Assembly (NCBI RefSeq): GCF_002197755.1
Contig: NZ_NHOT01000001.1
Coordinates: 1-64,000, forward strand
Length of the DNA stretch: 64,000 nt
Origin: Pedobacter sp. AJM
GTDB lineage: Bacteria; Bacteroidota; Bacteroidia; Sphingobacteriales; Sphingobacteriaceae
Direction of reading: 5' to 3'
The notes under the pieces were generated by a model. That model searched no databases. It was not told where the DNA came from and saw only the letters and a list, made by a program, of their open reading frames with translations. Below are positions 25,764-58,826 of the stretch, piece by piece. Position 1 is the stretch's first letter; every line of letters begins with the position of its first letter. A program made the translations under genes and the position numbers.

Positions 25764-25862
25764 AGGTTTTGGTTAGCGATCACCAAAGTTCATGGCGAAT
25801 TAATCGTTTTAGCAGATGGTTAATATTTTATAGGTTGATAAATTGTGGATCTAATATCAGAT

Positions 25863-26951
25863 CTAAAACTTGGTCACTTCATAAAATGCCTTTTTGGGCT
25901 TTAGTTCAGTGTCAAATAACAGGGGATAATTTTTTCTGCCCCGGGCATCCAGCCAGGTATAGCGGTCAGACAGGTTCCAGAAGGTTACGCCGGTAATGTT
26001 TTTTCTATATTTCCGCAATACTTCAAATATCATTTTATATTGTTCCATCTGGCGCGATTCCATTTCCGGGGTAAATTCTGCCTTTGCTTTTTGTTCGGCA
26101 TTTTGAATGAGCTGCCCGCCCTGGTTGCCATCGTATACAGAAACATCCAGTTCGGTAATCTGCACATCCAGGCCCAGGCCGGCAAATAACGCGATTGATT
26201 TTTCAAGTTCGGAACGGCTTGGGTTACTTACCGACCAATGTCCCTGTAAGCCGATGCCATGAATGGGTACGCCCCTGGCCAGCAAGGTCTTTAGCATTTT
26301 ATAAATTTTATCCCGCTTTTTAGGTTGTTCTGTATTATAATCATTATAAAATAAACGGGCCTTTGGATCGGCCTCATGCGCGTAACGGAAAGCCATTTCT
26401 ACAAAATCCTCACCTGCTATTTTATAAAATTGCGAATTGCGGAAATAAGTAGAATCGTCAGCAATAACTTCATTTACGACATCCCAGGCATAAATATCTT
26501 TTTTATAGTGATTGACTACAGTATGAATGTGTTCCTTTAACCGTTTCAATAATAAATCTTTTGATATGGTATTTCCCTGTTCATCCTTGAAAAACCATCG
26601 CGGTGCCTGATTGTACCACACCAGACAATGCCCCCTCATTTTTAGGTTGTTTTTTCTGGCGAAACCGGCAATAGCGTCTCCGTTTCGCCAGTTGTATTCA
26701 TTTTCCACAGGATGAATCGGGGCCATTTTCATGGCATTTTCTGCTGTCACGCTATTGAATTGATCTAGGATGAGTGCTTTATTTGTGCCATCCAGATCAC
26801 GTGGGGTAATGGCTACGCCAATAGGAAAGTAGTTTCGGTAATAGTCTTTTAAACCCTTTGCTTTCGGCAGCATTGGTTTAAAGGCTGTCATGATGATGCC
26901 AAAAGCCATCAACAGTAGGGTACCGATGATGAACACATTCCTTTTTGTCAT
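25863..26951 (-). CDS. GH10 endo-beta-1,4-xylanase
   Basis: A 362-aa single-domain xylanase. The catalytic pair is intact: acid/base Glu161 in WDVVNEV and nucleophile Glu267 in QITELDVS. Other GH10 marks are GHCLVWYNQAPRWF, YNDYNTE, GIGLQGHW and TFWNLSDRYTWLD. The N-terminus (1-25) is a hydrophobic segment without a clear AxA cleavage site or lipobox Cys, so the enzyme may stay anchored to the inner membrane facing the periplasm, cutting imported oligosaccharides. It leads the GH10-GH3-GH67 operon (99 bases to GH3). AACCAAAT abuts the ATG. It is divergent from the HTCS gene. Confidence 0.96.
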   Translation of the reverse strand: MTKRNVFIIGTLLLMAFGIIMTAFKPMLPKAKGLKDYYRNYFPIGVAITPRDLDGTNKALILDQFNSVTAENAMKMAPIHPVENEYNWRNGDAIAGFARKNNLKMRGHCLVWYNQAPRWFFKDEQGNTISKDLLLKRLKEHIHTVVNHYKKDIYAWDVVNEVIADDSTYFRNSQFYKIAGEDFVEMAFRYAHEADPKARLFYNDYNTEQPKKRDKIYKMLKTLLARGVPIHGIGLQGHWSVSNPSRSELEKSIALFAGLGLDVQITELDVSVYDGNQGGQLIQNAEQKAKAEFTPEMESRQMEQYKMIFEVLRKYRKNITGVTFWNLSDRYTWLDARGRKNYPLLFDTELKPKKAFYEVTKF

Positions 26952-27235
26952 ATTTGGTTTTTTAGGATTTGCAAATTCGCCACATTTTGATTTTTAACAG
27001 TGCTCTTATGGATAAATATCGGAAACAAATGTTTTCTAACGATTAGATTACAAAGTGATTTTGCACGCCTTTACTTTATGTGAAATGCTTTTTAACCCTG
27101 TAAACGGATAAAAATGAACATCTGTTGCCGCACTTTTTACAATAATCACACTCCGCTGTTTTCATTTGTCCTAATTTAGCAAATTCAATGGTAACCGGGG
27201 CTATCCCGTAACCAGACAAAAATAAATAACCAAAT

Positions 27236-27313
27236 ATGATATACCATCAAACTGGCAGGACCGCCCCGCTTAAACCGGAGCTTCATACAGCACTTATTTT
27301 AAAGCATTGCTGA
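27236..27313 (+). CDS. Possible 25-aa leader peptide
   Basis: ATG directly after AATAACCAAAT, the same leader found before CE1 (36147) and GH10. It encodes 25 residues, basic in the middle (QTGRTAPLKPELH), ending at TGA. It would be the first ORF on a transcript towards the HTCS gene. No Shine-Dalgarno. It could be chance; the shared leader is the only reason to list it. Confidence 0.2.
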   Translation: MIYHQTGRTAPLKPELHTALILKHC

Positions 27314-27429
27314 ACATTAACTTTAAGCTGAACTGACTGAAATGCATGTTCATCATCATCAAATGAATAATTGATTCGCTGTACTATTAAATTTTATATA
27401 AATTGGTGGCTTTAACCAAATCATCTCCC

Positions 27430-27458
27430 AATAGGCCTGTTCAAACACATGGCCTATT
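27430..27458. promoter_or_regulatory. Inverted repeat upstream of HTCS gene
   Basis: AATAGGCC (27430-27437) and GGCCTATT (27451-27458) are perfect inverted arms 13 nt apart, about 90 bases before the HTCS start. No T-tract follows, so it is an operator or a 5'-UTR hairpin rather than a terminator. Confidence 0.4.
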
Positions 27459-27545
27459 TGCAAAGGATAACTGGTTTACCGCTTGGAAAATCATCAGATT
27501 TTGCAGGTTTAAAGTTAACCGGAATAAAAAATTGACCAAATCATC

Positions 27546-30500
27546 ATGCTGAACCGCGTTGTTTTAAATACTGTTTTTTGTTTTACGCTTTGTCTGGTTT
27601 TCACAATGTCCGGACATGCACAAGAACAAAAAATTAATTTTACTTCCCTACAAATCAGAGACGGACTTTCTTCCAATACGGTGAATGCGATTCAAAAGGA
27701 CCACTATGGTTTGATGTGGTTCGCGACAGAAGACGGACTGAATAAGTTTGACGGAAGTAACTTTACCGTATACCGGTATAAATCAGATGATTCTACGGGC
27801 ATCCAGTCTAATGACATCAGATCCCTGCATGAAGATAAATCAGGAAATTTATGGATTGGTACTTCGGGCGGTTCTCTGAGTTTATTTGACCGGAAGAAAA
27901 ATGCTTTTATTACCTTCCCTGCAAACAAAGCCGATGCACTGAGCAGTAATATCATTCGTTCTATCTGCAGTGATTATAAAGGTAAGATATGGGTTGCCAC
28001 ATTTAATGGTTTGGATGAGCTTGATCCCAAAACCCGCAAAATTAAAAACCACCTTCGCCAGTATAGCTCCAAAGGTTCTTTTCCTGCACTCACCTTTAAC
28101 TGCCTGATTGAAGACAGTAAACGCAGAATCTGGGTAGGTTCAAACAATGGCATTTACTTATACCAAAGGGCAACCAACACTTTCAAGTTATTTCAGCATA
28201 ATGCTTCTGATCCTGCCGGTTTGTGTGATAATGCTGTCTCATCAATCGTGGAAGATAAAACCGGAAACATCTGGTTTGGTACCAGAAATGGCCTGAGTAT
28301 GCTGCTTCCGGAAGGAAAAGGCTTTAAAACCTTAAGGAATAACAAAGGTGACCTGAATACGCTGATGAACAATGGCATCAGAAGCCTGGCTGTTGATCAG
28401 AAGAATCAGCTCTGGATCGGAACGGAAGATGGCTTAAACGTGCTGGACATTAAAAGTGGCAGGATGTCGAGATACAGGCCCGATTCGAGGGATATTTACA
28501 GCCTCACCGGTAAATCGATCAGTTGCATCTATGTAGATAACGCCGGGATTTACTGGCTTGGGCCTTATCATGGCGGGGTATGTAAATATGATACCAACCT
28601 GAATTTATTTCACCTGAAGCAAAGTAATATTCTGGACCGTAATGGTTTGAATGGTTCGGTTGTCACATCATTTGCCGCATATAAAGGCGATATATTTGTA
28701 GGTACTGATGGTGGAGGTTTGAATTTGTTTAACCGCAAAACAGAACTGGTGCAGCGGTTTAATGCAGGCCTTGCCGATGGAAGTGCCTTAAATAACATAT
28801 CCATCATGGCCATGGAACTGACCCGGCAGCAAAAACTCTACATGGGTACCTATTCAAATGGTTTGGTGGTGATGGACTTGGCCACGCAAAACCTGAAGCA
28901 GTATAAACAGGGTACAGGTGCCGATGCCTTAAATTCAAACGATATTTTCTGTATTAAAGAAGACCACACTGGTAAAATCTGGGTAGGAACCAATGGTGGT
29001 GGAGTAAATGTGCTAAATGCCGACAATAAGGCATTGATTAAATACTGCAAAAACCCGAAGGCCATCAATGAAGTGGATTATCCCGGCAATAATTTTATCC
29101 GTTTTATTGAAGAAGACAACGCCGGCAATATCTGGATCGGTTCATACGGATCGGGCATAGCCGTCTTTAACCAAACCGGCAAAACGTTTACCATCCTGAA
29201 CAAAGCAGAAAATAAATTACCCAATGATCTGACTTTATCTATTCTGAAAGACCATGCCGGTGATTTATGGGTAGGAACGTTCAGCGGTGGATTAAGCTTG
29301 TATAATCAGACTACTAAAAAGTTTATCACCTTTGGTGAAAAGGAAGGGCTAAACAATGCCACTGTATACGCTATAAAAGAAGACAGGCAGGGACAGATAT
29401 GGGTGAGCACCAATAAAGGCATCAGTAGCTTTGACCGAAAATCACATACGTTCACCAATTATACTATTTATAACGGCGTTCAGAACAATAATTTTGTAGT
29501 GGGCGCCGGACTAAGCACTCCTGATGGTGAAATCTATTTTGGTGGTGCTGATGGTTTTAATTATTTTAATCCGCAGTATTTTAAAAAGAATAAAAATCTG
29601 CCTTCAGTTCTTTTTACTGACCTCAGAATATCCAATACTTCCATTCTTCCGGCAGAAGACGGGCCGATTGAAGAGGATATTTCAGTGGCAAAAGATATTT
29701 ACCTGGATTATAAGCAAAGCTTTACATTGAGTTATGTGAGCGTTAATTATACTGCGCCGGAGCAAAACCGCTATTCGTATCGTTTAGAAGGTTTTGATAA
29801 TGAATGGATCAATGCCGGATCTTCTAAATCGGTATCCTACACCAATCTGGATCCGGGTGACTATGTATTTCATGTTAAAGCCAGTAACAATGATGGTTTG
29901 TGGAATGCAGCAGAAACTTCCATCCGTATCCACGTGCGGCCACCTTTCTGGCGAAGCATTTATGCGTATATTTTTTATGTTGTTTTAATTGCCGGATCCT
30001 TGCTGTATATCCGTCACCGTGGCATCCGGAAGTTAAAAAGGGAATTTGCCGTGGTTCAGGAGAAAATGAAGGCCGATCAGCGCAGCATGCAGGAAAAACA
30101 GGAAGCCGAAAGGTTAAGAGAACTGGATAAACTGAAGATCAAATTCCTAACCAACCTGAGCCATGAATTCCGTACACCGCTTTCATTAATTATGGGGCCG
30201 GTAGATAAACTGATTGCAGAAGAAAAAGACAGTCAGGTTGTTGCGCCGTTGAGCATGATTAAACGCAATACCAAGCGCTTGCTTAACCTGGTGAACCAAA
30301 TTCTTGATTTCAGGAAAATTGAAGATCATGAATTGAGATTAGACCGTTCGGAAACCGATATTGTGGCTTTTATTAAAGAAGTACTCGAATCATTTAATGA
30401 TTTGAGTGAACGCAAGCAAATTCAGCTTATTTTTAAAAGTCAGCTGCGTTATTTTAATGCTGCTTTTGATCACGATAAAATAGAGCGTGTACTGTTTAAC

Positions 30501-31715
30501 CTGTTGTCTAATGCGTTTAAGTTTACCTCGCAGGGTGGTACCATTTCCGTAGAGCTGGAAAAAAAGGAATTTTCGGCAGGCAACGGTCAATCGGCCTTAG
30601 TGATTAAGGTTACTGATACAGGGATCGGCATCAACACAGCAGACCAGGAAAAGATATTTGAACGTTTTTTTCAGGCCGATGGCATCGCTCCGATTTTAAA
30701 TCAGGGAAGTGGGATTGGTTTATCAATAGCAAAGGAATTTGTGAAACTGCATGGGGGAGACATTACCGTACAGAGCGAACCCGGTGTGGGAAGTACTTTT
30801 TGCATTGAGTTGCCATTTGCTGAAGCAGAATTTTCAGAGGAGTTAACCATTGATTTCTCTGATTCAGGAAAAACTGAAGTGATCGCGGAAGAAAATGAGG
30901 AAACTGCCAAACAGACATCAGGGGGAGAAATTCCATCTATTTTACTGGTAGAGGATAATGAGGATTTTCGTTTTTACCTGAAGGATGGATTAAAATCATC
31001 TTTCAAGGTACATGAAGCCTGTAATGGTCAGGAAGGATGGCAAAAAGCCCTGGCTAACCATCCACAGATCATTGTTAGCGACATCAATATGCCTTATATG
31101 AATGGAATTGAATTGTGCAAAAAATTGAAATCAGATAAGCGTACAAACCATATCCCGGTTATTTTATTAACAGCCCTAACGGGTGAAGAAGAGCAGATCA
31201 AGGGACTGGAAACCGGTGCAAATGATTACCTGACCAAGCCTTTTAATTTTGAAATTCTGCATGCGAAAATTAGAAACCTGCTGGCACTGAATCAAAGGTT
31301 AAGGGATACCTATACCAAGCAAATTAAAGTTCAGGCACCAGAGGTGGTCATCGAATCGCATAGCAACCGCTTACTGAATAAGGTTGCACTGTATATTGAG
31401 GAAAACCTGAACAATCCAAAGCTGTCTGTGGAAGATTTAAGTAAACATGTGGGCATGAGCAGGGGTTCGCTTTACCATAAAATTTTAGAACTGACAGGAC
31501 TTTCACCAGTAGAGTATATCAGGTCGGTTAAGCTGGATAAAGCAACCGTATTACTCGAAAAAAGCGATCTGAATGTATCGCAGATTGCCTATATGGTTGG
31601 TTTTGCCACGCCAAATTATTTTGCGAAATCATTTAAGGCCAAATACAATATGCAGCCCTCTGAATACATGAATCTGAAACGGAAGTTGGAGGATCATGTT
31701 ACAAAGGACAAGTAA
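27546..31715 (+). CDS. Hybrid two-component system regulator (HTCS) of the xylan cluster
   Basis: A 1389-aa single-chain sensor-regulator. Order: signal peptide (1-26); periplasmic beta-propeller of Reg_prop repeats (about 35-690, recurrent W[IV]GT and DGLN marks); Y_Y_Y domain (about 720-795); one membrane helix (about 802-820); HisKA with SHEFRTP (His873); HATPase (NLLSNAFKFT, DTGIGI, GSGIGLSIAKE); receiver with LLVEDNED and phospho-acceptor Asp1179 in VSDINMPYMNG; AraC-type DNA-binding domain at the C-terminus (LSVEDLSKHVGMSRGSLYHK). HTCS proteins bind an oligosaccharide between propeller subunits and activate the local utilisation genes. It is divergent from GH10 and upstream of the esterase/GH43 genes, its likely regulon. 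Confidence 0.97.
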   Translation: MLNRVVLNTVFCFTLCLVFTMSGHAQEQKINFTSLQIRDGLSSNTVNAIQKDHYGLMWFATEDGLNKFDGSNFTVYRYKSDDSTGIQSNDIRSLHEDKSGNLWIGTSGGSLSLFDRKKNAFITFPANKADALSSNIIRSICSDYKGKIWVATFNGLDELDPKTRKIKNHLRQYSSKGSFPALTFNCLIEDSKRRIWVGSNNGIYLYQRATNTFKLFQHNASDPAGLCDNAVSSIVEDKTGNIWFGTRNGLSMLLPEGKGFKTLRNNKGDLNTLMNNGIRSLAVDQKNQLWIGTEDGLNVLDIKSGRMSRYRPDSRDIYSLTGKSISCIYVDNAGIYWLGPYHGGVCKYDTNLNLFHLKQSNILDRNGLNGSVVTSFAAYKGDIFVGTDGGGLNLFNRKTELVQRFNAGLADGSALNNISIMAMELTRQQKLYMGTYSNGLVVMDLATQNLKQYKQGTGADALNSNDIFCIKEDHTGKIWVGTNGGGVNVLNADNKALIKYCKNPKAINEVDYPGNNFIRFIEEDNAGNIWIGSYGSGIAVFNQTGKTFTILNKAENKLPNDLTLSILKDHAGDLWVGTFSGGLSLYNQTTKKFITFGEKEGLNNATVYAIKEDRQGQIWVSTNKGISSFDRKSHTFTNYTIYNGVQNNNFVVGAGLSTPDGEIYFGGADGFNYFNPQYFKKNKNLPSVLFTDLRISNTSILPAEDGPIEEDISVAKDIYLDYKQSFTLSYVSVNYTAPEQNRYSYRLEGFDNEWINAGSSKSVSYTNLDPGDYVFHVKASNNDGLWNAAETSIRIHVRPPFWRSIYAYIFYVVLIAGSLLYIRHRGIRKLKREFAVVQEKMKADQRSMQEKQEAERLRELDKLKIKFLTNLSHEFRTPLSLIMGPVDKLIAEEKDSQVVAPLSMIKRNTKRLLNLVNQILDFRKIEDHELRLDRSETDIVAFIKEVLESFNDLSERKQIQLIFKSQLRYFNAAFDHDKIERVLFNLLSNAFKFTSQGGTISVELEKKEFSAGNGQSALVIKVTDTGIGINTADQEKIFERFFQADGIAPILNQGSGIGLSIAKEFVKLHGGDITVQSEPGVGSTFCIELPFAEAEFSEELTIDFSDSGKTEVIAEENEETAKQTSGGEIPSILLVEDNEDFRFYLKDGLKSSFKVHEACNGQEGWQKALANHPQIIVSDINMPYMNGIELCKKLKSDKRTNHIPVILLTALTGEEEQIKGLETGANDYLTKPFNFEILHAKIRNLLALNQRLRDTYTKQIKVQAPEVVIESHSNRLLNKVALYIEENLNNPKLSVEDLSKHVGMSRGSLYHKILELTGLSPVEYIRSVKLDKATVLLEKSDLNVSQIAYMVGFATPNYFAKSFKAKYNMQPSEYMNLKRKLEDHVTKDK

Positions 31716-31928
31716 GATGGTCACCCTGATCTGGGTGTTGGCTTTGAATTAAATTTGTTCTTGCCCCGCTCACGCTCGTTTCCAAACCAGCACAGGCATA
31801 AAGCTGTGAACGATTGGGTTTCCAGATCAGGTGTTTGTTTTTTTACGTTCTTCTTCCTTTCAGCGAAAAGGTGCCGATAGGAGGCCAACTTAAACATTTA
31901 TCGCACTTTTTTATTCAAATCTGTTTTA

Positions 31929-31955
31929 TTGGCTTAGGCAATTAAACTAAATTTG
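31929..31955 (+). promoter_or_regulatory. Candidate promoter of the SASA esterase gene
   Basis: TTG (31929-31931), a 16-nt gap and TAAATTTG (31948-31955). The -7 match is exact; the gap is a little short. It gives a leader of about 13 nt containing TTAACCAATTATA before the ATG at 31975. Confidence 0.5.
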
Positions 31956-31974
31956 AAGATTAACCAATTATAGC

Positions 31975-33915
31975 ATGAGCCTGAGCAAGCGCTTTATTTT
32001 TTTTCTATACCTTATTTTTTGTGGGGCCTCGGCAGGAAATGCCCAGATCAGATTGCCGCATATTATCTGCGACAGCATGATCCTGCAGCGCGATCAGCCT
32101 TTGGAAATATGGGGATGGGCTTCACCAGGCGAACGGGTGATACTCCATTTTAAGGGAAAGCAATTCAGCACTACAGCAGGTGCAGATGAAAAGTGGCGCA
32201 TCGCACTTCCGGCCGTGAAAGCGGGCGGGCCTTATACCATGGAATTTTCCGGTAAAAATAAAGTGGTATTAAAAGATGTTCTTTTTGGTGATGTATGGCT
32301 CTGCGCCGGACAATCCAATATGGTACACCAGCTGAAGGTACACAATATTACCTACGCAAAGGACATTGCTGATGCAAATTATCCGCAGATCAGGCAATTC
32401 TGGGTGCCCACTGCCACCAATTTAAACGGACCATCCAAAGACCTGCCTAAAAGCAACTGGAAACCGGCCACCCGGGAAGGCATCAATGATTTTTCTGCTG
32501 TGGCTTATTTTTTTGCACGTAAAATCTATGAAGAACAAAAAATACCCATCGGGATCATCAATTCAAGTGTTGGCGGAACCACAATTGAAGCCTGGACAGG
32601 GGAAGACGGATTAAAAGGAATGGATGGAGTCAGTCAGGTTATTGCCCGTAATAAAGACACGGCTGCGGTTAACAAAATAAACAGGATGGCCGATGCCAAC
32701 CAAGCCCCGCCGGCAGTAAGTGCCGATAAAGGCTTGCTGGAGGAGGTGAAATGGTTTGATCCGGCATACCAGCCTAAAGGGTGGCGTAAGTTTGATCTGC
32801 CTGGTTACTGGGAAGATCAGGGCGTGCGGGATCTGGATGGTGTGGTCTGGTTCCGGAAAGAAATAGAAGTACCTGCTGGTATGGCCGATGCTCCTGCCTT
32901 TATCCAGCTGGGAAGAATAGTTGATGCAGACCGCCTTTACCTCAACGGAACGCTTGTGGGTTCAACGGGCTATCAGTATCCTCAAAGAAGATACCATGTC
33001 GCCGCCGGTGTACTAAAGCCCGGTAAAAATATTTTGGTGGTTCGGGTTGAAAATTCAAATGGAAAAGGAGGTTTTGTGCCAGATAAACCGTATTCGATTG
33101 AAGCCAATCAACAGATAATCAGTTTGAAAGGAGAATGGCAATATAAAGTAGGAGAAACTTATCGACCTGTATTTAGAAAGGGCCCCTTCCGCATTCAGGA
33201 ACAGGCGCAACCTACCGCACTTTATAATGCGATGGTAGCACCTGCTATTCAATACGGGATAAAAGGCGTATTGTGGTATCAGGGTGAAAGTAATGTTGGC
33301 AATGCATTGGCCTATAAAAAGTTATTGCCGGCCATGATTCAGGACTGGAGGACGCAGTTTAAAAAACCTGACCTTCCGTTTTACTATGTTCAACTGCCCA
33401 ATTACGGCGATATGCGCTATCAGCCAGGTGAAAGTGCCTGGGCTTTGTTGAGAGAAGCAGCACTGGAAACACTCCAGGTACCCCATACCGGAATGGCCGT
33501 TACAATTGATCTTGGAGAGTGGAATGACATTCATCCGGATGATAAAAAAGATGTTGGCGAACGCCTGGCATTGATTGCTGAACGATGGAGTTACGGAAGA
33601 AAAAATCTCGTTTATTCGGGGCCAATTTACAAATCCTCGGCTATTGAAGGTCGTCAGATGATCCTCCGTTTTGATCATATCGGTTCAGGCCTGAAAACAA
33701 TCGATGGAGAAGCCCTTTCACAGTTTGAAATTGCCGGTGCAGACAAGAAATTTGTATGGGCAGATGCAGAAATTAAAGGTGATCAGGTGATTGTTCATTC
33801 ATCACAGATTGAAAAGCCGATGTATGTACGTTATGCCTGGGCAGATAATCCGGTTAATCCAAATTTATATAACCAGGAAAACCTTCCGGCCTCACCGTTT
33901 CGTACTGACAGGTAG
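31975..33915 (+). CDS. SASA-domain acetylesterase (sialate O-acetylesterase family, likely acetyl-xylan esterase)
   Basis: A 646-aa exported protein (signal peptide about 1-24, ending NAQ). It is an SGNH-type esterase: nucleophile Ser114 in CAGQSNM, a YQGESN block near 435, and Asp518/His520 in WNDIHPDD completing the triad. A jelly-roll beta domain is inserted at about 250-385 (WFRKEIEVPAG; LYLNGTLVGSTG), as in long sialate O-acetylesterase homologues. In a xylan cluster the likely substrate is O-acetyl on xylose rather than sialic acid; that is inference from neighbours. It lies 259 bases after the HTCS gene with its own candidate promoter. Confidence 0.9.
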   Translation: MSLSKRFIFFLYLIFCGASAGNAQIRLPHIICDSMILQRDQPLEIWGWASPGERVILHFKGKQFSTTAGADEKWRIALPAVKAGGPYTMEFSGKNKVVLKDVLFGDVWLCAGQSNMVHQLKVHNITYAKDIADANYPQIRQFWVPTATNLNGPSKDLPKSNWKPATREGINDFSAVAYFFARKIYEEQKIPIGIINSSVGGTTIEAWTGEDGLKGMDGVSQVIARNKDTAAVNKINRMADANQAPPAVSADKGLLEEVKWFDPAYQPKGWRKFDLPGYWEDQGVRDLDGVVWFRKEIEVPAGMADAPAFIQLGRIVDADRLYLNGTLVGSTGYQYPQRRYHVAAGVLKPGKNILVVRVENSNGKGGFVPDKPYSIEANQQIISLKGEWQYKVGETYRPVFRKGPFRIQEQAQPTALYNAMVAPAIQYGIKGVLWYQGESNVGNALAYKKLLPAMIQDWRTQFKKPDLPFYYVQLPNYGDMRYQPGESAWALLREAALETLQVPHTGMAVTIDLGEWNDIHPDDKKDVGERLALIAERWSYGRKNLVYSGPIYKSSAIEGRQMILRFDHIGSGLKTIDGEALSQFEIAGADKKFVWADAEIKGDQVIVHSSQIEKPMYVRYAWADNPVNPNLYNQENLPASPFRTDR

Positions 33916-34166
33916 CCTGATTAAGTTTCAGGTTAATTAATGACCTTCCATACCTGTTTTATTCTTTTCATTCAAGGGTACTTAAAGATGTTTGTATCCA
34001 AAGCGTTACCTCTCAAAATCAACGGTAAACATATTTTCTATAATAATCATCAAAACTTCCCGTCTGAAACGGGCATATCGCCTAGTTTTATCCTGTGGTA
34101 TTCCTGATCGGGTCATTATTAAGTTATAGTGATTTTTTAAATCAGGAAAGGCACGATGAATATTAA

Positions 34167-35051
<885 letters not shown>

Positions 35052-35099
35052 GACTAAATCCCTGCAGTTTAATTATTAAACTAACCAAATACGAACGAT

Positions 35100-36068: not shown

Positions 36069-36140
36069 ACCAGCCCATTCAATCATAAAATGCAACAGTA
36101 CAGACAGCATTGCTGTGCCTGATAACCTTAATTAACCTAA

Positions 36141-38081
<1,941 letters not shown>

Positions 38082-44648: not shown

Positions 44649-44813
44649 AAAGACAAGCCTTTTTTATACCAAAATTGAACAATAATGCTAATAATTTAGT
44701 CAATAGTTCAACGCTGCGGTATCTGATAGGCCTATCTTCGGAATTTATTAAGGGTATGAATGTGTGGTGATAATGGCCAGCATTCATCTGGAATAACCAA
44801 TATAAACTGATTT

Positions 44814-46595: not shown

Positions 46596-47463
46596 GCAAT
46601 CGTTATAAAAAGTAAATTTTAAAGTATGCGCCCTGGTTTGTGGAAACACGACCAGGGCTTTTTATTTATCCTCCTTTTGTATTGAGACAATTTAATTATC
46701 GGATGAATATTAATAACATCACTATGTCCATTTTATGACTAATACATCATACATCATTTAGTCTTTTCGGTATTTTTCGCAGGTTTGGTGTTTTGTTATC
46801 CTGCTGAAACATTCCCATTATGAATGCTTATGCGTTTTTTTTATGTTTTGGAGATTAAAATACACTAAGTCTTAAAAATATTATTCAGGGTAATAAATAT
46901 TTTAAAATAATTTTTCGTCATAATTGCTTTTATATGTCTCTAAGGGCGGTTTTTTGGCTGCTTTTACCTGCCCTGAACATGAATCCTATAAATTTAAACA
47001 ATTGTGCTATCTATAAATTACACACGATCCTACATTTATCTCAACCAAATATAAGACACATCTTAACTGAGATGTAAGGCTAACCAAATAACTTATGAAT
47101 CTAAATTTAACCAAACTTAATCCTTTTCATTAGCGTGCATTTTAACTAATTACAGATTTTTTATGGGGCAGGTGAGCTGTCCGATGATGGAATTTATTGC
47201 ACCTGATTAATGGATTGAACTGAATGGACGATTTTAGATATGATCCATTAATACAAATAAACCAAATATTGCCCATATGAGACCGCCTACCTAACTAAAC
47301 AATAGCAATGTCTCTAACTCAGACCTGCATCAGTTTACAGCATTTTATACTAACCAAATTCTAACCCATGTATGATGAAGAAATCCAACTTCAAAGCCAT
47401 AGAATATGAGCCTTCTATGCACAACCGAACAAATCAAATTCTGCATTTTCTAAATCAATTAAT
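46596..47463 (+). promoter_or_regulatory. 868-bp leader and regulatory region of SusC1 operon
   Basis: After the GH43 terminator there is a long non-coding stretch. From 47041 on, the motif AACCAAA(T) appears five times (47041, 47081, 47107, 47260, 47351), three of them shortly before small ATG-started ORFs. The last ORF (47372-47467) overlaps the SusC1 start. No exact TAnnTTTG box is found; TACATTTA at 47031-47038 is one base off. An HTCS-dependent promoter is likely but not located. Confidence 0.55.
46630..46665 (+). terminator. Terminator of the enzyme operon
   Basis: GCCCTGGT (46630-46637) and ACCAGGGC (46651-46658) pair perfectly, followed by TTTTTATTT. It lies 35 bases past the last GH43 stop. 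Confidence 0.85.
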
Positions 47464-47467
47464 ATGA
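47372..47467 (+). CDS. Possible 31-aa upstream ORF overlapping SusC1 start
   Basis: ATGATG at 47372-47377 opens a 31-residue frame (basic, no signal peptide; FKAIEYEPSMHNRTNQI) whose TGA (47465-47467) overlaps the SusC1 ATG (47464-47466) as ATGA. That layout allows termination-reinitiation coupling. It is preceded by TAACCAAATTCTAACCC. It may be a leader peptide or chance. Confidence 0.3.
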   Translation: MMKKSNFKAIEYEPSMHNRTNQILHFLNQLI

Positions 47468-50400: not shown

Positions 50401-50631
50401 TATGATGCCTCTTACATCCGTTTAAAAAACGCAGAACTGGGTTATACCCTTTCGGGAAAATCAATCAGCAAGCTGGGAATAAGGTCCTGCAGGTTTTATG
50501 TGAACGGCAACAACTTGTTTCTTTGGACAAACATGCCGGACGACCGGGAATCCAACTTCAGCGGAGTTTCCCAAGGTGGGGCATATCCAACAGTTAAACG
50601 TTTCAATTTTGGTATTGACATCACTTTATAA
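47464..50631 (+). CDS. SusC-like TonB-dependent transporter (SusC1)
   Basis: A 1055-aa outer-membrane beta-barrel. A signal peptide ends near VMAQ (residue 43), after a long n-region; Met2 is an alternative start. Next come a carboxypeptidase D regulatory-like domain (about 46-130, RGTVVDEQNDPLTGVTI), the TonB-box region EVIVVGYG, the plug (about 140-260, with LILIDGIERSISSID and GVRGANGVILVTTKQG) and the barrel to the C-terminal FGIDITL. With SusD1 it should form a lidded oligosaccharide importer driven by TonB. It is first in a five-gene transport operon; SusD1 starts 11 bases after its stop. Confidence 0.96.
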   Translation: MMDNYTITSSNGRHIHQKFSALLLRITFIMLSLLLMANAVMAQQKRILRGTVVDEQNDPLTGVTITLKGTNTRVVSNGEGKFSMEIPTEKSTLLFNYIGMSQKEITLTDKNDIVVSMNNDNKVLNEVIVVGYGQQKKASVVGAISQTSGKVLERSGGVTNLGMALTGNLPGVVTTASSGMPGGEDPQILIRGQSSWNNSSPLILIDGIERSISSIDISSVESVSVLKDASATAVYGVRGANGVILVTTKQGVEGRAQVQVRSNLTAKVASRLPEKYDSYDALMIKNRIIERESVVDQNAWSGYTAMQMIDKYRNPLNANEWDRYPNVDWEKELFKDRAMSYNTSANVSGGSKFVTYFAGLDLTREGDLFKTFPNQRGYESNFGYNRTNVRSNLDFNLTRTTKFSTKLFGSNGVRQLPYDMADGDQSFWSSAYRTAPDSFRPIYSDGTYGFFPTATQDQPNAAFWLAYSGVEKRTSTQLTTDFILQQKLDMLTKGLSLRGSLSLDNTFLERKRGVNDQFNAAQRKYVNPLTGIISFEQQRNAGTQFDFTDAIQWSTAAGEVDKNATFRNMNYQFQVNYDRTFGSHAVTGMGLVQRQRTARGSAFPTFREDWVFRTTYNYQSKYLFEANGAYNGSEQFGPDYRFAFFPSVSAGWAISNEEFMKSLKFLDLLKVRASWGRIGDDALGGPRWPFRDSYLYGNNTPMGSPAIATPYTIYRIGTMGNPNLSWETVEKRNLGIEYSFFKGDISGNIDIFRDHRKDIMIGGGARAIPSYYGFGSSAPRANLGEVSSRGYEIELRLTHSFGQGIRAWANLALTHATNKTNFRDDPELTPDYQKQEGYAIGQTRSFLDNGFIKSWDDLYGSTVRLSNNQNKLPGDYNIIDFNADGVIDDKDRAPYGYTGSPQNTYNASIGFEWKRFNLFFQFYAVNNVTREIEFPNYQGKSNVVFVERPFWYLQDGGGEVPPPRWSVLDAFGGSGTRYYYDASYIRLKNAELGYTLSGKSISKLGIRSCRFYVNGNNLFLWTNMPDDRESNFSGVSQGGAYPTVKRFNFGIDITL

Positions 50632-50642
50632 ACGATTTGAAG

Positions 50643-52538: not shown

Positions 52539-52554
52539 TTTTAAGGGAGAAAAG

Positions 52555-55422
52555 ATGAACACAAAAAATATAAATGCTTACTGCTTTTGGCTCCTGATCT
52601 GCTTTTTCAGCTTCAATGGAGCCTATGCACAGGAAACCAAAGACAGTTTGGTAAATGTTGCCTTTGATAAGGTCGCGAAAAAAAATCTTCTCGGAGGGGT
52701 GTCTGTCGTAAACGTTTCAGATTTACTGAATAAAAGTTACGGCACCTATAGTCTGGATAATCTTCAGAGTTTTGTTGGCGGTTATACCGGAAATATCTGG
52801 GGCCAGGCACCATTAATATTGGTTGATGGTATTCCGCGCCGCGCCACAGATGTACGTTTGGTGGAAGTAGAAGCTATCACGGTTTTAAAAGGGGCCAGTG
52901 CAGTGGTCTTATACGGGAGTACCGCAGCCAAGGGTGCAATCCTCATTACCACAAAACGTGGAAGTGAAAATCCTTTAAAAATTAAAGTAAGGCTCAATTC
53001 AGGGATTTTTGTGCCTAAAAGTTTTCCCGGCTATTTAAAATCAGCTGATTACATGACTTTGTACAATGAAGCCTTAACCAATGATGGAATTGCCACTTCA
53101 GGAGCGGGATACACGCAGCAGGATATTGACAATACCAGGTCTGGTGTAAATCCTTACAAGTATCCTGATGTAGATTTTTTCAGCTCGGATTATTTGAGGA
53201 AAACCTATTCCCGTTCAGATGTAACCACTGAAGTCTCCGGTGGCAACAACTTTGCACGTTATTATACCAATATTGGCCTTTCTTATAACAACAGCCTGGT
53301 CAAATACGGGGAACAAAAAAACAATAGCGACCTGGCATTCAATGTGAGGGGAAATGTAGATATGAACATTGCCAAATGGCTCACCGCATCAGCTGATGCA
53401 GTAGCCATCTCTAATAGTAATTACACTGGCAGAGGAAATTTTTGGGGTTCAAGTTCTACCATTGCACCTAATTTCAACAGGTTTTCGCCACTTATACCAA
53501 TTGATATGCTTGACCCCGGTAATGCGGCTTTGCAAACGATTGTTAAAAATAGCAATCATATTATCGATGGAAAATTTTTACTGGGCGGACAAAGTACCAA
53601 CCCTACAAACGTATTCTCAGATATGCTTGCCGCAGGTTACATTCGGACCAAATCCAATACTTTTCTCTACAACCTGAACCTGAAGGCAGATTTAAGTTCA
53701 ATAACAGAGGGTTTAAGTTTTAAAACCGGAACCAGTATGGATTATTCTTCTCTGTATTCTGAAGCCTATCTATTACCCTATGCCACTTACAGACCAACAT
53801 GGTCAACTGTAAATGGTAAGGATGTGATCACCGCATTGGAGAAATTCGGAGAAGATAAAAACTCCACTAATGAATATGTTGGCCGTTCTACTTACACGCA
53901 AACCATGTCATTCAGGTCGCAGTTTAATTACAACCGAACTTTTGCTCAGGACCATACGGTTTCTGCAAATGTTTTAGGCTGGTGGTATAAAACACAGTTT
54001 TCAAGTGATATCGACAATGAAGGTGGCAGCGATTATCAACCTGTTCTCAACACGAATCTTGGTTTTCAGGCGGCTTATAACTTCAGGAGTAAATATTATT
54101 TCGATTTTTCAGCGGCATTGATTCACTCCGCAAAACTACCTCCAGGTAACAGAAACGGAATTTCTCCGGCAGTTACAGTTGGATGGCGCATGTCTAATGA
54201 ATCATTTTTTAAAGATCATTTATCTTTTATTGATGATCTTAAGCTATCTGCATCATATGCTTCTATTAAACAAGATCTGGATATCACGGGCTACAGGGCC
54301 AATAATGTAAATGAGCCGGTAGATTATTATTTATACCAGGGTTATTACAGCAACAATGCTATCCTGGGTGGATATTACCAATGGAGAGACAATGTTGCGG
54401 GTGGCAGAACCACCTTATCCGGACAGGCAGAAAATCCTGATTTAACTTTTGTTAAAAGAAATGAGTTTCGTTTAGGTCTGGATGTTGCAATATTTAAAAA
54501 CCTCCTAACTTTTGATTTTAATTATTTTTCACAAAACACCAAAGGATTACTTGCCCGGGGCCTCACCATTTATCCTTCTTATTTTTCCGGCTCAGGAGAT
54601 TTCCGCCCATGGATCAATTTTAATGAAGACAAACGTACAGGATTTGATTTTGCATTGAACCTGAACAAACAAGCCGGACAGTTATTTTATTCGCTTGGCG
54701 TATCAGGAATGTTCTATAATAGTAAGGCTGTTCAAAGGGATGAAATCATTGATCAGGCTTATCTGGCCAGGGCCGGCCGTCCGTTAGATGCTTATTATGG
54801 ATACATCAGTGAGGGTCTTTTTCAAAATCAGGCAGAAATTGATGCTCATGCCAAACAAACCTTTGGTACAGTGAAGCCAGGAGATATCAAATACAAGGAT
54901 TTAAATAATGATGGCTTAATTGATAACAGGGATCAGCAGGATCTGGGCCATACAGGATGGGCCGCTTCACCTTTTAGCTTCGGGTTAAACCTCACGTTAA
55001 AATATAAGCACTTCACCTTATTTGCCCTGGCATCTGGTACCAGGGGAGCCGTTGGATTTAAAAACAGCTCGTACTACTGGGTTGGCGGAAGTGGAAAATA
55101 TTCTGAGGCGGTGTTAGACCGATGGACCGAGCAAACCAAAGCAACGGCAACCTATCCGCGTTTAACCACCAATAGCAATAATAACTTCCGAAATTCTACC
55201 TTCTGGATGTATAAAACGAATCGGTTCGATCTTAACCGGGTACAGTTAACTTATGATTTTGATAAGAAAATTTTCAATGATTCATTTGTGCATGGACTAA
55301 GCTTATACCTACAAGGAGATAATTTACTGGTGATTTCATCAGAACGGAAACTAATGGAAACCAACATTGGAACAGCACCGCAAACACGGTTCTTTAACCT
55401 GGGTGCAAGGGTATCTTTTTAA
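52555..55422 (+). CDS. SusC-like TonB-dependent transporter, short form (SusC2)
   Basis: A 955-aa barrel (signal peptide about 1-25, ending AYAQ). Unlike SusC1 and SusC3 it has no carboxypeptidase-like N-terminal domain and no EVVVVGYG box. Instead VNVAFDKVAKKNLLGGVS leads straight into the plug (APLILVDGIPRRATDV; LYGSTAAKGAILITTKRG). This is a recognised shorter SusC subclass; the VNVAF stretch may act as the TonB contact. The barrel runs to FNLGARVSF. The start has an unusual AAGGGAG purine run 8 bases upstream, the most Shine-Dalgarno-like site of the operon. It pairs with SusD2 22 bases on. Confidence 0.95.
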   Translation: MNTKNINAYCFWLLICFFSFNGAYAQETKDSLVNVAFDKVAKKNLLGGVSVVNVSDLLNKSYGTYSLDNLQSFVGGYTGNIWGQAPLILVDGIPRRATDVRLVEVEAITVLKGASAVVLYGSTAAKGAILITTKRGSENPLKIKVRLNSGIFVPKSFPGYLKSADYMTLYNEALTNDGIATSGAGYTQQDIDNTRSGVNPYKYPDVDFFSSDYLRKTYSRSDVTTEVSGGNNFARYYTNIGLSYNNSLVKYGEQKNNSDLAFNVRGNVDMNIAKWLTASADAVAISNSNYTGRGNFWGSSSTIAPNFNRFSPLIPIDMLDPGNAALQTIVKNSNHIIDGKFLLGGQSTNPTNVFSDMLAAGYIRTKSNTFLYNLNLKADLSSITEGLSFKTGTSMDYSSLYSEAYLLPYATYRPTWSTVNGKDVITALEKFGEDKNSTNEYVGRSTYTQTMSFRSQFNYNRTFAQDHTVSANVLGWWYKTQFSSDIDNEGGSDYQPVLNTNLGFQAAYNFRSKYYFDFSAALIHSAKLPPGNRNGISPAVTVGWRMSNESFFKDHLSFIDDLKLSASYASIKQDLDITGYRANNVNEPVDYYLYQGYYSNNAILGGYYQWRDNVAGGRTTLSGQAENPDLTFVKRNEFRLGLDVAIFKNLLTFDFNYFSQNTKGLLARGLTIYPSYFSGSGDFRPWINFNEDKRTGFDFALNLNKQAGQLFYSLGVSGMFYNSKAVQRDEIIDQAYLARAGRPLDAYYGYISEGLFQNQAEIDAHAKQTFGTVKPGDIKYKDLNNDGLIDNRDQQDLGHTGWAASPFSFGLNLTLKYKHFTLFALASGTRGAVGFKNSSYYWVGGSGKYSEAVLDRWTEQTKATATYPRLTTNSNNNFRNSTFWMYKTNRFDLNRVQLTYDFDKKIFNDSFVHGLSLYLQGDNLLVISSERKLMETNIGTAPQTRFFNLGARVSF

Positions 55423-55443
55423 TGACCTATAACTTTTAATGAT

Positions 55444-57216
55444 ATGAAATTCAAAATATTAATTTTAGGGTTGGCAGTGCTTTCGTTCACTGGCTGCAAA
55501 AAAATTCTGGAGCCTGAACCAGAAAATCTGAAGACGATTGATCAGATGTATACGGATGCGAATTTTGCACAAGGTTTTTTAATCAACGCTTACCGTACCA
55601 TTCCCGCTTATTACGATAACTCTGAATATGCCACTGATGATGCCGTAACCAACCAGCTTACCAATGGTTATTTGCAGGCTGCTGCGGGTTCATGGACATC
55701 AACCAATAATCCTGCATCGGTTTGGAACCAGTCTTATGAAGCCATGCAATACATCAATCTTTTCCTGGAAAATTCACCGAAAGTCAAGTGGGCAACGGAT
55801 GCAGAAAGTTCCAGGCTTTTTAACCTGAGAATGAGGGGAGAGGCTTTCGGTCTTCGTGGATTGTATCTCTATTTTCTGTTGCGCAACCATGGCGGTATTG
55901 CCACCAATGGACAGCTGATGGGCGTGCCGATTGTAACAGCCTATCAAACCCCTAAAACAGATTTTAATGTTCCGCGGGCTACATTTGATGCCTGTATTAA
56001 ACAAATTTACAAAGACCTGGATAGCGCCGAAGCTTACTTACCCGTGGAGTATAATGATATTTCGACTGCAAGCCAGATACCCGATCGCTTTAAAGCTTTT
56101 ACCGGAAATGTGGAAACCTACAATCGGGTAATGGGACAATATGCACGTCAGTTGTTTAATGGATTAATAGCAAGATCGTTTAGGGCAAGAGCAGCACTGC
56201 TGGCGGCCAGTCCGGCATTTCAGAATAGTGCCAATACCACTACCTGGGCTGATGCTGCTGAATATGCCGGCCGTGTGATCGATTATAAAGGCGGAGCCAA
56301 TGCCCTTCCGGCAAATGGAGGTACTTATTATGCCAACAACTCAGAGGTTGATGGATTAGGTGGGGGTAGTAATCCTTCTGAAATCATCTGGCGTGAAAAT
56401 ATCATCACTAATGACGGTACCCAGGAAGGGCAGCATTTTCCGCCATCTTTATTCGGAAACGGATTAATGAATCCCACACAAAACCTGGTAGAATCTTTTG
56501 CTATGGCAAACGGTTACCCGATAAATCATCCGAACGCTAATTTTAATGCCAATGCACCATATGCGTCGAGAGACCCGAGGTTTGCAAAATATATTATTTT
56601 TGACGGGGCAACCGCCGGTGTAACCAATGCCGTGATCAGAACAGGTAGTGCTTCCGGCACAGATAACGGTATTAATGTTCGTGCAACTTCTACGCGTACA
56701 GGTTATTACATGAAAAAGCGTTTAAGGATGGATGTTAACCGTAACCCGATCTCTTTAAGTGGTAAAACACATTATAATCCACGGATCCGCTATACCGAGA
56801 TTTACCTCGATTATGCCGAAGCAGCAAACGAAGCATGGGGGCCAACCGCCACCGGAACCAGAACCTATTCTGCATACGACATCATAAAAGCCATTCGTAA
56901 GCGGGCTTTCGGATTCAATAACGATCCTTACCTGGAAGAATGTAAGGCCGATGTAGCCAAAATGCGTGAACTGATCAGGAATGAACGCCGATTGGAGCTT
57001 TCTTTCGAAGGTTTTAGGTTTTGGGACCTCAGGCGCTGGAAAGCAGATCTGTCAAAACTTAATGAAACGGCCAGAGGCTTAGATGTCAATAGCGGTATTT
57101 ATAAGCCATTTAATGCCGAAACGAGGGCCTTTCAGCAATATATGATTTACGGCCCCATTCCAAACTCAGAAGTCCTGAAGTATAATCAACTGCTGCAAAA
57201 TCAAGGTTGGAAATAA
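55444..57216 (+). CDS. SusD-like outer-membrane lipoprotein (SusD2)
   Basis: A 590-aa lipoprotein with lipobox FTGC (Cys about 19) followed by KKILEPEP. SusD/RagB features include the early helical repeats, EAANEAWGP and the C-terminal NERRLELSFEGFRFWDLRRW signature, with the tail QNQGWK. It should cap SusC2. It lies 22 bases after SusC2 and 28 bases before the DUF1735 lipoprotein gene. Its low identity to SusD1 by eye suggests a different bound glycan. Confidence 0.96.
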   Translation: MKFKILILGLAVLSFTGCKKILEPEPENLKTIDQMYTDANFAQGFLINAYRTIPAYYDNSEYATDDAVTNQLTNGYLQAAAGSWTSTNNPASVWNQSYEAMQYINLFLENSPKVKWATDAESSRLFNLRMRGEAFGLRGLYLYFLLRNHGGIATNGQLMGVPIVTAYQTPKTDFNVPRATFDACIKQIYKDLDSAEAYLPVEYNDISTASQIPDRFKAFTGNVETYNRVMGQYARQLFNGLIARSFRARAALLAASPAFQNSANTTTWADAAEYAGRVIDYKGGANALPANGGTYYANNSEVDGLGGGSNPSEIIWRENIITNDGTQEGQHFPPSLFGNGLMNPTQNLVESFAMANGYPINHPNANFNANAPYASRDPRFAKYIIFDGATAGVTNAVIRTGSASGTDNGINVRATSTRTGYYMKKRLRMDVNRNPISLSGKTHYNPRIRYTEIYLDYAEAANEAWGPTATGTRTYSAYDIIKAIRKRAFGFNNDPYLEECKADVAKMRELIRNERRLELSFEGFRFWDLRRWKADLSKLNETARGLDVNSGIYKPFNAETRAFQQYMIYGPIPNSEVLKYNQLLQNQGWK

Positions 57217-57244
57217 GTAACACTGAATTAATCATTTAGACAAT

Positions 57245-58276
57245 ATGAAAATTAACAATATATATATCGCTCTCGCATTAGCACTTAGCCTGATGGCCTC
57301 CTGTAAAAACGAGAAGATTGCCTTTCCTGAATTTGACTATAAAACAGTTTATTTTGCCAGTCAATATCCTTTAAGAACAGTGGTTTTGGGAGAAGATTTA
57401 ATTGTAGACAATTCAATGGATAAAAACCACATGGTTTCCATTAAAGCTACCCTTGGCGGAGGTTATGAAAATAAAAACGATGTGGTAATTGATATTCAGA
57501 AGGCTGAAACATTGCTGAATGGGCTGAAGTTTAATAATGGCGGCGGACAGGTTTTGCCGATGCCGGCAGAATACTATCGCTTAATGTCTAACCAAATCAG
57601 AATCAATGCCGGTGATGTTTTAGGTGGGGTGGATGTACAATTAACAGATGCATTTTTTGCTGATCCCAAAGCGCTGAGCAGAAACTATGTCATCCCATTG
57701 GTAATGACCAAGGTTACCGGTGCGGATTCTATTTTAAAAGGGATTCCTGTTGTATCCAATCCTTCAAGGGTAAACCCGCTGCACTGGGCAACCAGACCAA
57801 AAGATTATATACTTTATGGTGTTAAATACGTTAATCCGTGGCATGCCAACTATTTACGCAAAGGCATAGACCAGATTACCCAGGCCAACGGTACCATGAA
57901 TACCGTTTCACGTCATACGCCTTATGTAGAAAGCAATGAGCTGGTGAGTATGAGCACGGTATCACTTAAAACGGCAAGTTTACCCCTTACCATTAAAAAT
58001 AGTGCAGGTACAAACGTATCCTTTACGCTCCTGTTGAATTTCGCTGATGACAATACCTGTACCCTCGCCAGCAGTACGACCAATATAGAGGTTACAGGAA
58101 GTGGCAGGTTTGTTTCCAATGGTGAAAAGAACAGTATTGGTGGCAGCAGCAGAAGTGCGATATACGTGGATTATACGGTGAACTTTAAAAATCTTAATTT
58201 AAAATATGCAACAAAAGACACGCTAATTGTTCGCGACAGAGGAATTAAAGCTGAATATTTTGATGTGACTAACTAG
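57245..58276 (+). CDS. DUF1735-domain lipoprotein, likely surface glycan-binding protein
   Basis: A 343-aa lipoprotein (lipobox LMASC, Cys about 20). The N-terminal half matches the DUF1735/BT_3987-like beta domain (IAFPEFDYKTVYFASQYPLRTV; ADPKALSRNYVIPLV), and the C-terminal half (from about 180) resembles DUF5627, another beta-sandwich. Such proteins stand after susCD genes in many Bacteroidota loci and are thought to bind glycans or peptides on the cell surface. No catalytic motif is seen. It is the last gene of the SusC1-D1-C2-D2 operon; a hairpin follows at 58371. Confidence 0.85.
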   Translation: MKINNIYIALALALSLMASCKNEKIAFPEFDYKTVYFASQYPLRTVVLGEDLIVDNSMDKNHMVSIKATLGGGYENKNDVVIDIQKAETLLNGLKFNNGGGQVLPMPAEYYRLMSNQIRINAGDVLGGVDVQLTDAFFADPKALSRNYVIPLVMTKVTGADSILKGIPVVSNPSRVNPLHWATRPKDYILYGVKYVNPWHANYLRKGIDQITQANGTMNTVSRHTPYVESNELVSMSTVSLKTASLPLTIKNSAGTNVSFTLLLNFADDNTCTLASSTTNIEVTGSGRFVSNGEKNSIGGSSRSAIYVDYTVNFKNLNLKYATKDTLIVRDRGIKAEYFDVTN

Positions 58277-58370
58277 TCATATTGTTCATTAATTCGAAGC
58301 TTTTATAAGATTGTCTGAAATGAGTCTCTTTATGATTCCTGAATATTCGAATTAATATTCACTCCAGAAC

Positions 58371-58401
58371 GGGACAGGTGAGCAAGCCTGTCCCTTGATT
58401 T
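58371..58401 (+). terminator. Hairpin ending the SusC1-DUF1735 operon
   Basis: GGGACAGG (58371-58378) pairs with CCTGTCCC (58387-58394) across an 8-nt loop, then TTGATTTG. The stem is strong but the T-tract is broken, so termination may be partial. Confidence 0.6.
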
Positions 58402-58529
58402 GATAAAAACAATAAGGTTAATAAATGATTTCTTAATACCATGATTGTATGATTAAATAGCCTGATAATTTCCATTTCTTAAGCTTTTATTTGGTGGTGT
58501 TTGGAATAAAAATTCAGAAAATAAAAAAA

Positions 58530-58543
58530 TACAATCGATTGCA
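58530..58543. promoter_or_regulatory. Candidate LacI-family operator upstream of SusC3
   Basis: TACAATCGATTGCA fits the LacI-family consensus TGnAAnCGnTTnCA except for one base, with the typical central CG. It lies in A/T tracts about 285 bases before the SusC3 start. No LacI gene is in the window. Confidence 0.45.
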
Positions 58544-58657
58544 TTTTTAATGATGCGTTTTTGGGCTTGATTTAAAGAATCTTGCCTGAAACGCTGTATT
58601 TGATAAAAAAAGAAATTTTCTTGCACATTTCTACCTTAAAAATGTACAATTGAATCA

Positions 58658-58686
58658 TTGTTGAAGGGTTGATCTAAATACCTTTA
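58658..58686 (+). promoter_or_regulatory. Candidate promoter of the SusC3 operon
   Basis: TTG (58658-58660), an 18-nt gap and TACCTTTA (58679-58686), one base off TAnnTTTG. It predicts a leader of about 135 nt. Confidence 0.45.
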
Positions 58687-58826
58687 CCTTCATACAGGCT
58701 TAATAGTATTCAGTAGTATTTTTTGTTTCGCATTCTTTTATGTCTTTCATGACATGCTCTTGCTATTCAACTGACGATTGATCATCTGTTGAGGTCTGTT
58801 TTTTTTAACCATTATAAACTGTTTTT

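What the first reader, a model, noticed from the sequence alone, without database searches (positions are those of the whole stretch)
25764..58826. Recurrent TAACCAAAT motif hugging start codons of carbohydrate genes
Nine genes carry [T/A]AACCA followed by A/T within about 25 nt before the ATG: kduI (9491), GH3 (25775-25768, minus), GH10 (26959-26952, minus, abutting ATG), HTCS (27535), SASA esterase (31960), GH43 (35082), CE1 (36138, abutting ATG), GH43 (44794) and SusC3 (58805). The genes at 559, 1980, 4684, 8211, 13480 and 15112 lack it. It is too close to the start to be a promoter and is unlike a Shine-Dalgarno. It may be a translation-initiation element or a pairing site for a small RNA or RNA-binding protein that coordinates polysaccharide genes.
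Basis: partly seen in the sequence, partly recalled or inferred. Interest (0 to 1): 0.75.

Follow-up and report, generated by a model that had tools for sequence, protein, structure and literature searches.

The report
Start-codon leader motif of exported-protein genes
Pedobacter bacteria, which make little use of the usual ribosome-binding signal, carry a short sequence built around AACCA just before the start codons of many genes for exported sugar-capturing proteins, probably as a signal that helps or controls the start of translation.

Summary
The motif is real and genome-wide, but not private to carbohydrate genes. The window is from a Pedobacter. Eight of nine listed sites are correct; the HTCS site reads TTGACCAAAT. 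In 942 genes from 1.46 Mb of this genome, AACCA starts at -26..-5 in 84, against 30 and 28 in two equal windows further upstream. ACCAAA is the most leader-enriched non-coding hexamer in that sample. CTAACCAAAT is a leader in 14 of 30 places, against 1 of 30 for its mirror image. Frequency rises from cytosolic genes (35/599) through exported ones (35/230) to SusC (20/50). SusD, the next gene, has 1/30, though its leader mostly overlaps susC. Motif search in 105 SusC leaders of Sphingobacteriaceae returns TTAACCAAA. Class-wide controls show little (3/27). Most likely it works like a C-containing version of the A-rich, non-Shine-Dalgarno initiation signal of Bacteroidota. A target site for an sRNA or RNA-binding protein, like FopS on susC in Bacteroides, is the main rival; a strict search of about a third of the genome found no such sRNA. 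Retention in orthologues is only mild support.

The parts
9493..9498 (+). TAACCA abutting ATG of KduI/IolB-family gene (9499)
   Evidence: kept at the same place in Pedobacter sp. ISL-64 (L023) where the upstream sequence differs
25767..25775 (-). TAACCAAAA before ATG of GH3 gene (23139-25763)
   Evidence: kept in P. psychrotolerans L009; L010 has a different first ATG and was not comparable
26952..26960 (-). AAACCAAAT abutting ATG of GH10 gene (25863-26951)
   Evidence: AAACCAGAT in L009, lost in L010
27227..27238 (+). TAACCAAATATG in the GH10-HTCS intergenic region; opens a 25-codon frame
   Evidence: motif plus ATG identical in window, L009 and L010 while both flanks diverge
27413..27421 (+). 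TAACCAAAT inside a conserved block upstream of HTCS, no ATG beside it
27533..27541 (+). TGACCAAAT, imperfect copy before HTCS ATG (27546)
   Evidence: not kept in L009/L010
31961..31969 (+). TAACCAATT before ATG of SASA esterase (31975)
   Evidence: TAACCA kept in L009 and L010, at another distance in L011
35082..35090 (+). TAACCAAAT before ATG of GH43 (35100)
   Evidence: kept in L009 and L010
36138..36146 (+). TAACCAAAT abutting ATG of esterase-family (CE1) gene (36147)
   Evidence: AACCAAATATG kept in L009, L010 and P. foliorum L012 with diverged upstream sequence
44794..44799 (+). TAACCA before ATG of GH43 (44814)
   Evidence: of four distant homologues (41-45% identity) only L012 has AACCA
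47350..47359 (+). CTAACCAAAT before a 31-codon frame (47372-47467) that overlaps the SusC1 start (47464)
   Evidence: translation of the small frame is inferred, not shown
58806..58811 (+). TAACCA before ATG of SusC3 (58827)

Best explanation
The motif is a translation-initiation-region signal acting in the mRNA: a short, G-poor stretch (consensus (C/T)TAACCAAA(T)) whose AACCA core begins 26 to 5 nt before the start codon. It most likely works like the A-rich upstream signal that Bacteroidota use instead of a Shine-Dalgarno sequence, in a C-containing form special to this lineage. I infer that the initiating 30S subunit contacts it where mRNA positions of about -15 to -10 lie, perhaps through bS1. 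It is used mostly by genes of exported proteins, above all SusC transporters, usually the first gene of their operons, so it would set how strongly a glycan-use operon is translated. Shown here: position, strand, enrichment, class bias, distribution in the family, retention in some orthologues. Inferred: RNA-level action, ribosome contact, effect on output.
For: Start-proximal and strand-specific. Near 84/942 against far 30/942, Fisher p = 2e-7. ACCAAA has the highest leader score of hexamers with at least 20 non-coding copies, 47 of 213 against 7% overall. CTAACCAAAT is a leader in 14/30 places against 1/30 for the mirrored 10-mer; loci came for 30 of 35 and 30 of 47 places; without the window 12/25 against 1/29. 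Exported operon-internal genes carry it about as often as other exported ones (11/76 with gap under 40 nt, 19/104 with more, 4/49 divergent). SusC 20/50 against 79/926 other genes (p = 8e-9), 14/28 in other Pedobacter species, 8/27 in other genera of the family. EM returns TTAACCAAA from 105 SusC leaders, log-likelihood ratio 140 against 50 for the far region. The 20 own SusC leaders with the motif are not copies of each other, mean identity 0.34. The 50 own SusC leaders hold 4% G over the last 26 nt against 16% upstream. Literature (passages): A at -14..-11 goes with better initiation in Flavobacterium, bS1 proposed as reader (PMC6847099); C and A signals near -15 in Bacteroidetes among other phyla (PMC5397173).
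Against: Only about 9% of genes carry it, and of 24 ribosomal-protein genes (named by eye) one does. Its distance to the ATG varies without a sharp register. Motif genes are not significantly less structured (p = 0.12 and 0.16). Retention in orthologues is 30/60 against 0.34 for all 5-mers, pairs not independent, and 13 other 5-mers with 15 or more cases are retained more. In other genera of the family the window -48..-27 has as many SusC leaders with AACCA (8/27) as -26..-5 (8/27), so the tight peak is a Pedobacter feature. Of 14 AACCA copies in leaders with a TAnnTTTG box, 8 lie 3-11 nt behind the box, so a link to the mRNA 5' end is not excluded. No expression or ribosome data exist here.
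Confidence: 0.5

Rival explanations
1. It is the target site of a trans-acting regulator, a small RNA with a UUUGGUUA seed or an RNA-binding protein such as the RRM protein of this genome, that controls translation of susC and other exported-protein mRNAs together.
For: In B. [quoted passage not shown] This genome has one RRM_1 match, a 105-aa protein. SusC 20/50 against SusD 1/30 matches control at the operon head, with the caveat that SusD leaders mostly overlap susC.
Against: In about a third of the genome a strict filter (seed, promoter-like box, perfect-stem terminator) gave one place only, which looks like a Phe/Tyr attenuator leader. In the window no Rfam family besides a tRNA reaches its gathering score. 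No clustering of copies beyond Poisson expectation. A secondary citation gives GUAGGAUA as the RbpB motif in B. theta, unlike AACCA (PMC12119571, passages). Cytosolic genes also carry the motif.
Confidence: 0.27
2. It is a by-product of selection for unpaired, G-poor, A-rich leaders; AACCA is simply a common word under that constraint.
For: Leaders are A-rich and G-poor. Motif leaders fold slightly, not significantly, less.
Against: 51 observed against 25.1 from a position-specific Markov model, while AACAA, AAACA, AACTA and AATTA sit near expectation; AATCA is also raised, 45 against 27.8. The mirror 10-mer of the same composition is a leader in 1 of 30 places.
Confidence: 0.13
3. It is a DNA-level element, a transcription-factor half-site or part of the promoter or mRNA 5' end.
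For: TTGGT-7 nt-ACCAA forms a dyad at 27403-27419 in a conserved block upstream of HTCS. Some motif leaders have a TAnnTTTG box a few nt upstream; 8 of 14 copies in leaders with a box lie 3-11 nt behind it.
Against: No antisense enrichment. Genes with a box ending at -45..-12 carry it little more often (9/76 against 74/807). Present in operon-internal genes.
Confidence: 0.1

Closest known systems
A-rich, Kozak-like non-Shine-Dalgarno initiation region of Bacteroidota (Baez et al. 2019, PMC6847099; passages read)
   Same: Same place (-15 to -3), same phylum, no Shine-Dalgarno, A-rich
   Different: Here a defined word with CC, above A-rich background, biased to exported genes and SusC, hardly in ribosomal-protein genes, and little seen in class-wide controls
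FopS/GibS sRNA target regions on susC and other mRNAs, with RbpB (PMC11697453, PMC7366714; passages read)
   Same: Short element at the translation initiation region of first genes of glycan-use operons
   Different: FopS is described across Bacteroidaceae; no sRNA partner found here in the part searched, the motif also sits on cytosolic genes, and the FopS seed letters were not in the passages seen
Base-composition signals of non-SD genes: C and A near -15 (Nakagawa et al. 2017, PMC5397173; passages read)
   Same: C and A near -15 reported for Bacteroidetes among other phyla
   Different: A composition component, not a word, and not tied to gene classes in the passages read
TAnnTTTG -7 promoter element of Bacteroidota
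   Same: Also an enriched word close to starts in this genome
   Different: Different sequence; weak or no link to the motif

Membership tests
Bacteroidota A-rich non-SD initiation region | Enrichment upstream of the start codon within about -15 to -3, sense strand only | tested here: met
Bacteroidota A-rich non-SD initiation region | Positive effect on translation efficiency | not testable with these tools
   needs reporters or ribosome profiling
Bacteroidota A-rich non-SD initiation region | Stronger in strongly translated genes (ribosomal-protein genes taken as stand-in) | tested here: not met
   1 of 24 ribosomal-protein genes named by eye; so I say 'works like', not 'is a member'
[quoted passage not shown]
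   20/50 own, 14/28 genus, 8/27 rest of family; SusD 1/30
FopS-type sRNA target site | A complementary small RNA exists | tested here: inconclusive
   none with a strict filter in about a third of the genome; the rest not searched
RRM-protein binding site | An RRM_1 protein is encoded | tested here: met
RRM-protein binding site | The protein binds AACCA | not testable with these tools
   a secondary citation gives GUAGGAUA for B. theta RbpB
Transcription-factor or promoter site | Both-strand or promoter-linked occurrence | tested here: not met
   spacing to the box rests on 14 copies and leaves a 5'-end link open

The most novel reading that the evidence does not exclude
Sphingobacteriaceae have a family-wide post-transcriptional regulon: one trans-acting RNA or RNA-binding protein reads TAACCAAA at the translation start of susC operons and other exported-protein genes, and so sets glycan uptake as a whole.
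Probability: 0.22. Interest if true: 0.8.

Novelty: new variant of a known kind. Interest (0 to 1): 0.5.

Why it matters
How Bacteroidota ribosomes find start codons without Shine-Dalgarno pairing is still open. A defined, mutable word tied to SusC and exported proteins gives a direct handle on that question and on how soil glycan degraders set the output of their utilisation loci. It would also help start-site calling in Pedobacter genomes.

Tried and rejected
PUL-only motif: rejected, since cytosolic and non-sugar exported genes carry it. Carbohydrate share among exported non-SusC genes outside the window, by my reading of Pfam: with motif 9/30 (GH3, two GH43, aldose epimerase, GH2, BNR_4, ThuA, arabinofuranosidase, pectate lyase), without 5/30 (GH30, GH88, GH20, two SusD); not convincing. 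These were 30 of 31 motif genes and a random 30 of 186 others; some motif genes are neighbours.

Small hidden ORFs behind the motif: weak. Non-leader copies of TAACCAAAT in the sample are followed by ATG within 30 nt in 7/10 against 0.44 background.

Tandem copies as a sign of protein binding: not above Poisson. TAA of the motif as the upstream gene's stop: 8 of 38 end an open frame of 20 codons or more. Paralogous copying of SusC leaders: rejected for the 20 motif-bearing ones. Raw whole-genome counts with a gap pattern over 118 genomes decide nothing, since they mix in coding sequence.

Samples of 55, 65 and 62 genes from three other genomes show at most a slight peak and are too small; 139 Chitinophagaceae and 26 Mucilaginibacter genes show no clear peak; 83 genes of named Pedobacter loci do (27 copies in -30..-1 against 7 in -100..-31), but several of these loci are orthologous to the window. 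Pairing with tRNA D-loops or 16S rRNA was thought of from memory and not tested.

Limits: genes are ATG ORFs of at least 150 aa, first ATG taken as start; signal peptides by my own rule; SusC in the sample recognised by BLAST to three window copies (16 found), so the 926 'other' genes may hold a few SusC; SusC leaders read for 50 of 56 in the genome. One locus each was dropped from the genus, family and class sets for lack of a readable frame or start. Loci were the best-scoring matches, not random. Of the class genomes only 14 of 30, own included, had a match over the family cut-off, so many class loci are partial TonB-receptor matches. The SusD control is weakened because its leader lies mostly in the end of susC (mean gap 13 nt). 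The 10-mer was chosen after seeing the window.

Full report
WHERE. The HTCS protein at 27546 has its best relatives in Pedobacter (89% in P. psychrotolerans and Pedobacter sp. R20-19). The window lies in a 4.88 Mb draft genome of 28 contigs, G000.

OBSERVATION. Reading the leaders of 34 window genes confirms eight of the nine sites; the HTCS site is TTGACCAAAT. Over the whole window the word is no commoner than in shuffles (40 against 37), so only its place is unusual.

GENOME TEST. From scattered stretches (later 36) I took ATG ORFs of 150 aa or more: 807 genes, later 942 in 1.464 Mb, window included. AACCA peaks at -20 to -11 (46 copies, against 6 to 12 per bin beyond -40), with no peak on the other strand or after stop codons. 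It exceeds a position-specific Markov model two-fold; AATCA was also raised, AACAA, AAACA, AACTA and AATTA were near expectation. In genes: 84/942 at -26..-5, 30/942 at -74..-53, 28/942 at -98..-77. Among non-coding hexamers of the sample with at least 20 copies, ACCAAA has the highest leader score (47 of 213); of 20 non-coding TAACCAAAT copies in the sample 10 are leaders.

COMPOSITION-MATCHED CONTROL. CTAACCAAAT occurs 35 times in the genome and its mirror image TAAACCAATC 47 times. Of the 30 places each that came with sequence, 14 against 1 lie within 45 nt before the ATG of an ORF of 100 codons or more, and 23 against 3 lie outside ORFs (p = 2e-4 and 2e-7). Five of the 30 places (two of the 14 leaders) are in the window; without them it is 12/25 against 1/29.

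GENE CLASSES. Near-start AACCA: cytosolic 35/599 (far 17), three or more membrane spans 9/89 (far 6), exported without Sus proteins 35/230 (far 6). SusC leaders of the own genome: 20/50, against 79/926 other genes (p = 8e-9). SusD, the exported gene about 13 nt behind SusC: 1/30 own, 3/27 genus, 0/26 in the family set; most of that window is susC coding sequence, which weakens the control. Of 24 ribosomal-protein genes, named by eye from their N-termini, one has it. The exported bias holds in operon-internal genes (11/76 against 11/141) and in co-directional genes with gaps of 40 nt or more (19/104 against 18/321); divergent genes show no bias (4/49 against 14/183). The motif is therefore not a private mark of utilisation loci; it leans to exported proteins, most to SusC.

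TAXONOMIC REACH. SusC leaders: 14/28 in other Pedobacter species, 8/27 in other genera of the family, 3/27 in class-wide controls, many of which are only partial SusC matches. In the other genera the window -48..-27 holds as many (8/27), against 1 and 3 in the two farthest windows, so the tight start-proximal peak is a Pedobacter feature. An EM search over 105 SusC leaders of the family (-45..-1) returned TTAACCAAA; the region -100..-56 gave a weaker unrelated pattern, 248 exported-gene leaders a weak aaTTaAACC, and 240 cytosolic leaders the promoter box TAttTTTGc. The 20 own SusC leaders with the motif share little else (mean identity 0.34, highest 0.53), so the motif is either kept or arises repeatedly.

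CONSERVATION. In the CE1 gene the block AACCAAATATG is the same in four species while the sequence upstream differs; GH43, SASA and KduI leaders keep the word in the relatives compared closely; GH10 and HTCS leaders do not keep it everywhere. Over 52 orthologue pairs AACCA is retained in 30 of 60 cases against 924 of 2704 for all 5-mers; the pairs overlap, and 13 other 5-mers with 15 or more cases do better, so this is mild support only. Upstream of HTCS, ATAACCAAATATGAT is identical in three species though the frame it opens is not conserved.

MECHANISM. Sense-strand bias, closeness to the ATG, presence in operon-internal genes and G-poor surroundings point to action in the mRNA at initiation. 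Bacteroidota make little use of Shine-Dalgarno pairing; A at -14..-11 goes with better initiation in Flavobacterium and bS1 has been proposed to read that stretch (PMC6847099, passages). I take the motif to work like that signal in a C-containing form, at 0.5; I do not file it as a member, since ribosomal-protein genes hardly carry it. The rival, a site for an sRNA or RNA-binding protein, has a precedent in Bacteroides FopS and RbpB (PMC11697453, passages) and gains from the SusC/SusD contrast and from one RRM protein in the genome. It loses from the missing sRNA (about a third of the genome, strict filter), the lack of clustering and the cytosolic carriers. DNA-level and pure-composition readings fit worse, although 8 of 14 copies in leaders with a TAnnTTTG box lie 3-11 nt behind it.

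NOVELTY. My literature searches (listings; passages of PMC6847099, PMC11697453, PMC7366714, PMC12119571, PMC10783764, PMC5397173) showed no description of this word; they cover only open-licence papers, and of 101 papers with the letters TAACCA and Bacteroidetes I saw 15 in the listing. Nearest published hints are the A-rich signal and a C-and-A composition signal near -15.

Noticed in passing
window 47372-47467: A 31-codon frame preceded by CTAACCAAAT ends inside the start of SusC1 (its stop overlaps the ATG), an arrangement that would allow translational coupling.
   Followed up: partly
window 27223-27242 and 27375-27435: Two conserved blocks upstream of the HTCS gene; the second holds a TTGGT-7nt-ACCAA dyad (27403-27419).
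   Followed up: partly
L115, about 13290-13480: Short frame MKLFNTYYFGYFYYFSESRG followed by a strong terminator-like hairpin: looks like a Phe/Tyr attenuation leader.
   Followed up: no
window 52543-52554: SusC2 has a Shine-Dalgarno-like AAGGGAGAAAAG before its ATG, unusual for Bacteroidota.
   Followed up: no
L310:1405-1722: The genome encodes a small RRM protein (105 aa) of the kind studied as RbpB in Bacteroides.
   Followed up: partly
SusC leaders of the own genome (L164-L213): The 50 SusC leaders are nearly free of G over the last 26 nt (4% against 16% further upstream) while C stays at 19%.
   Followed up: partly
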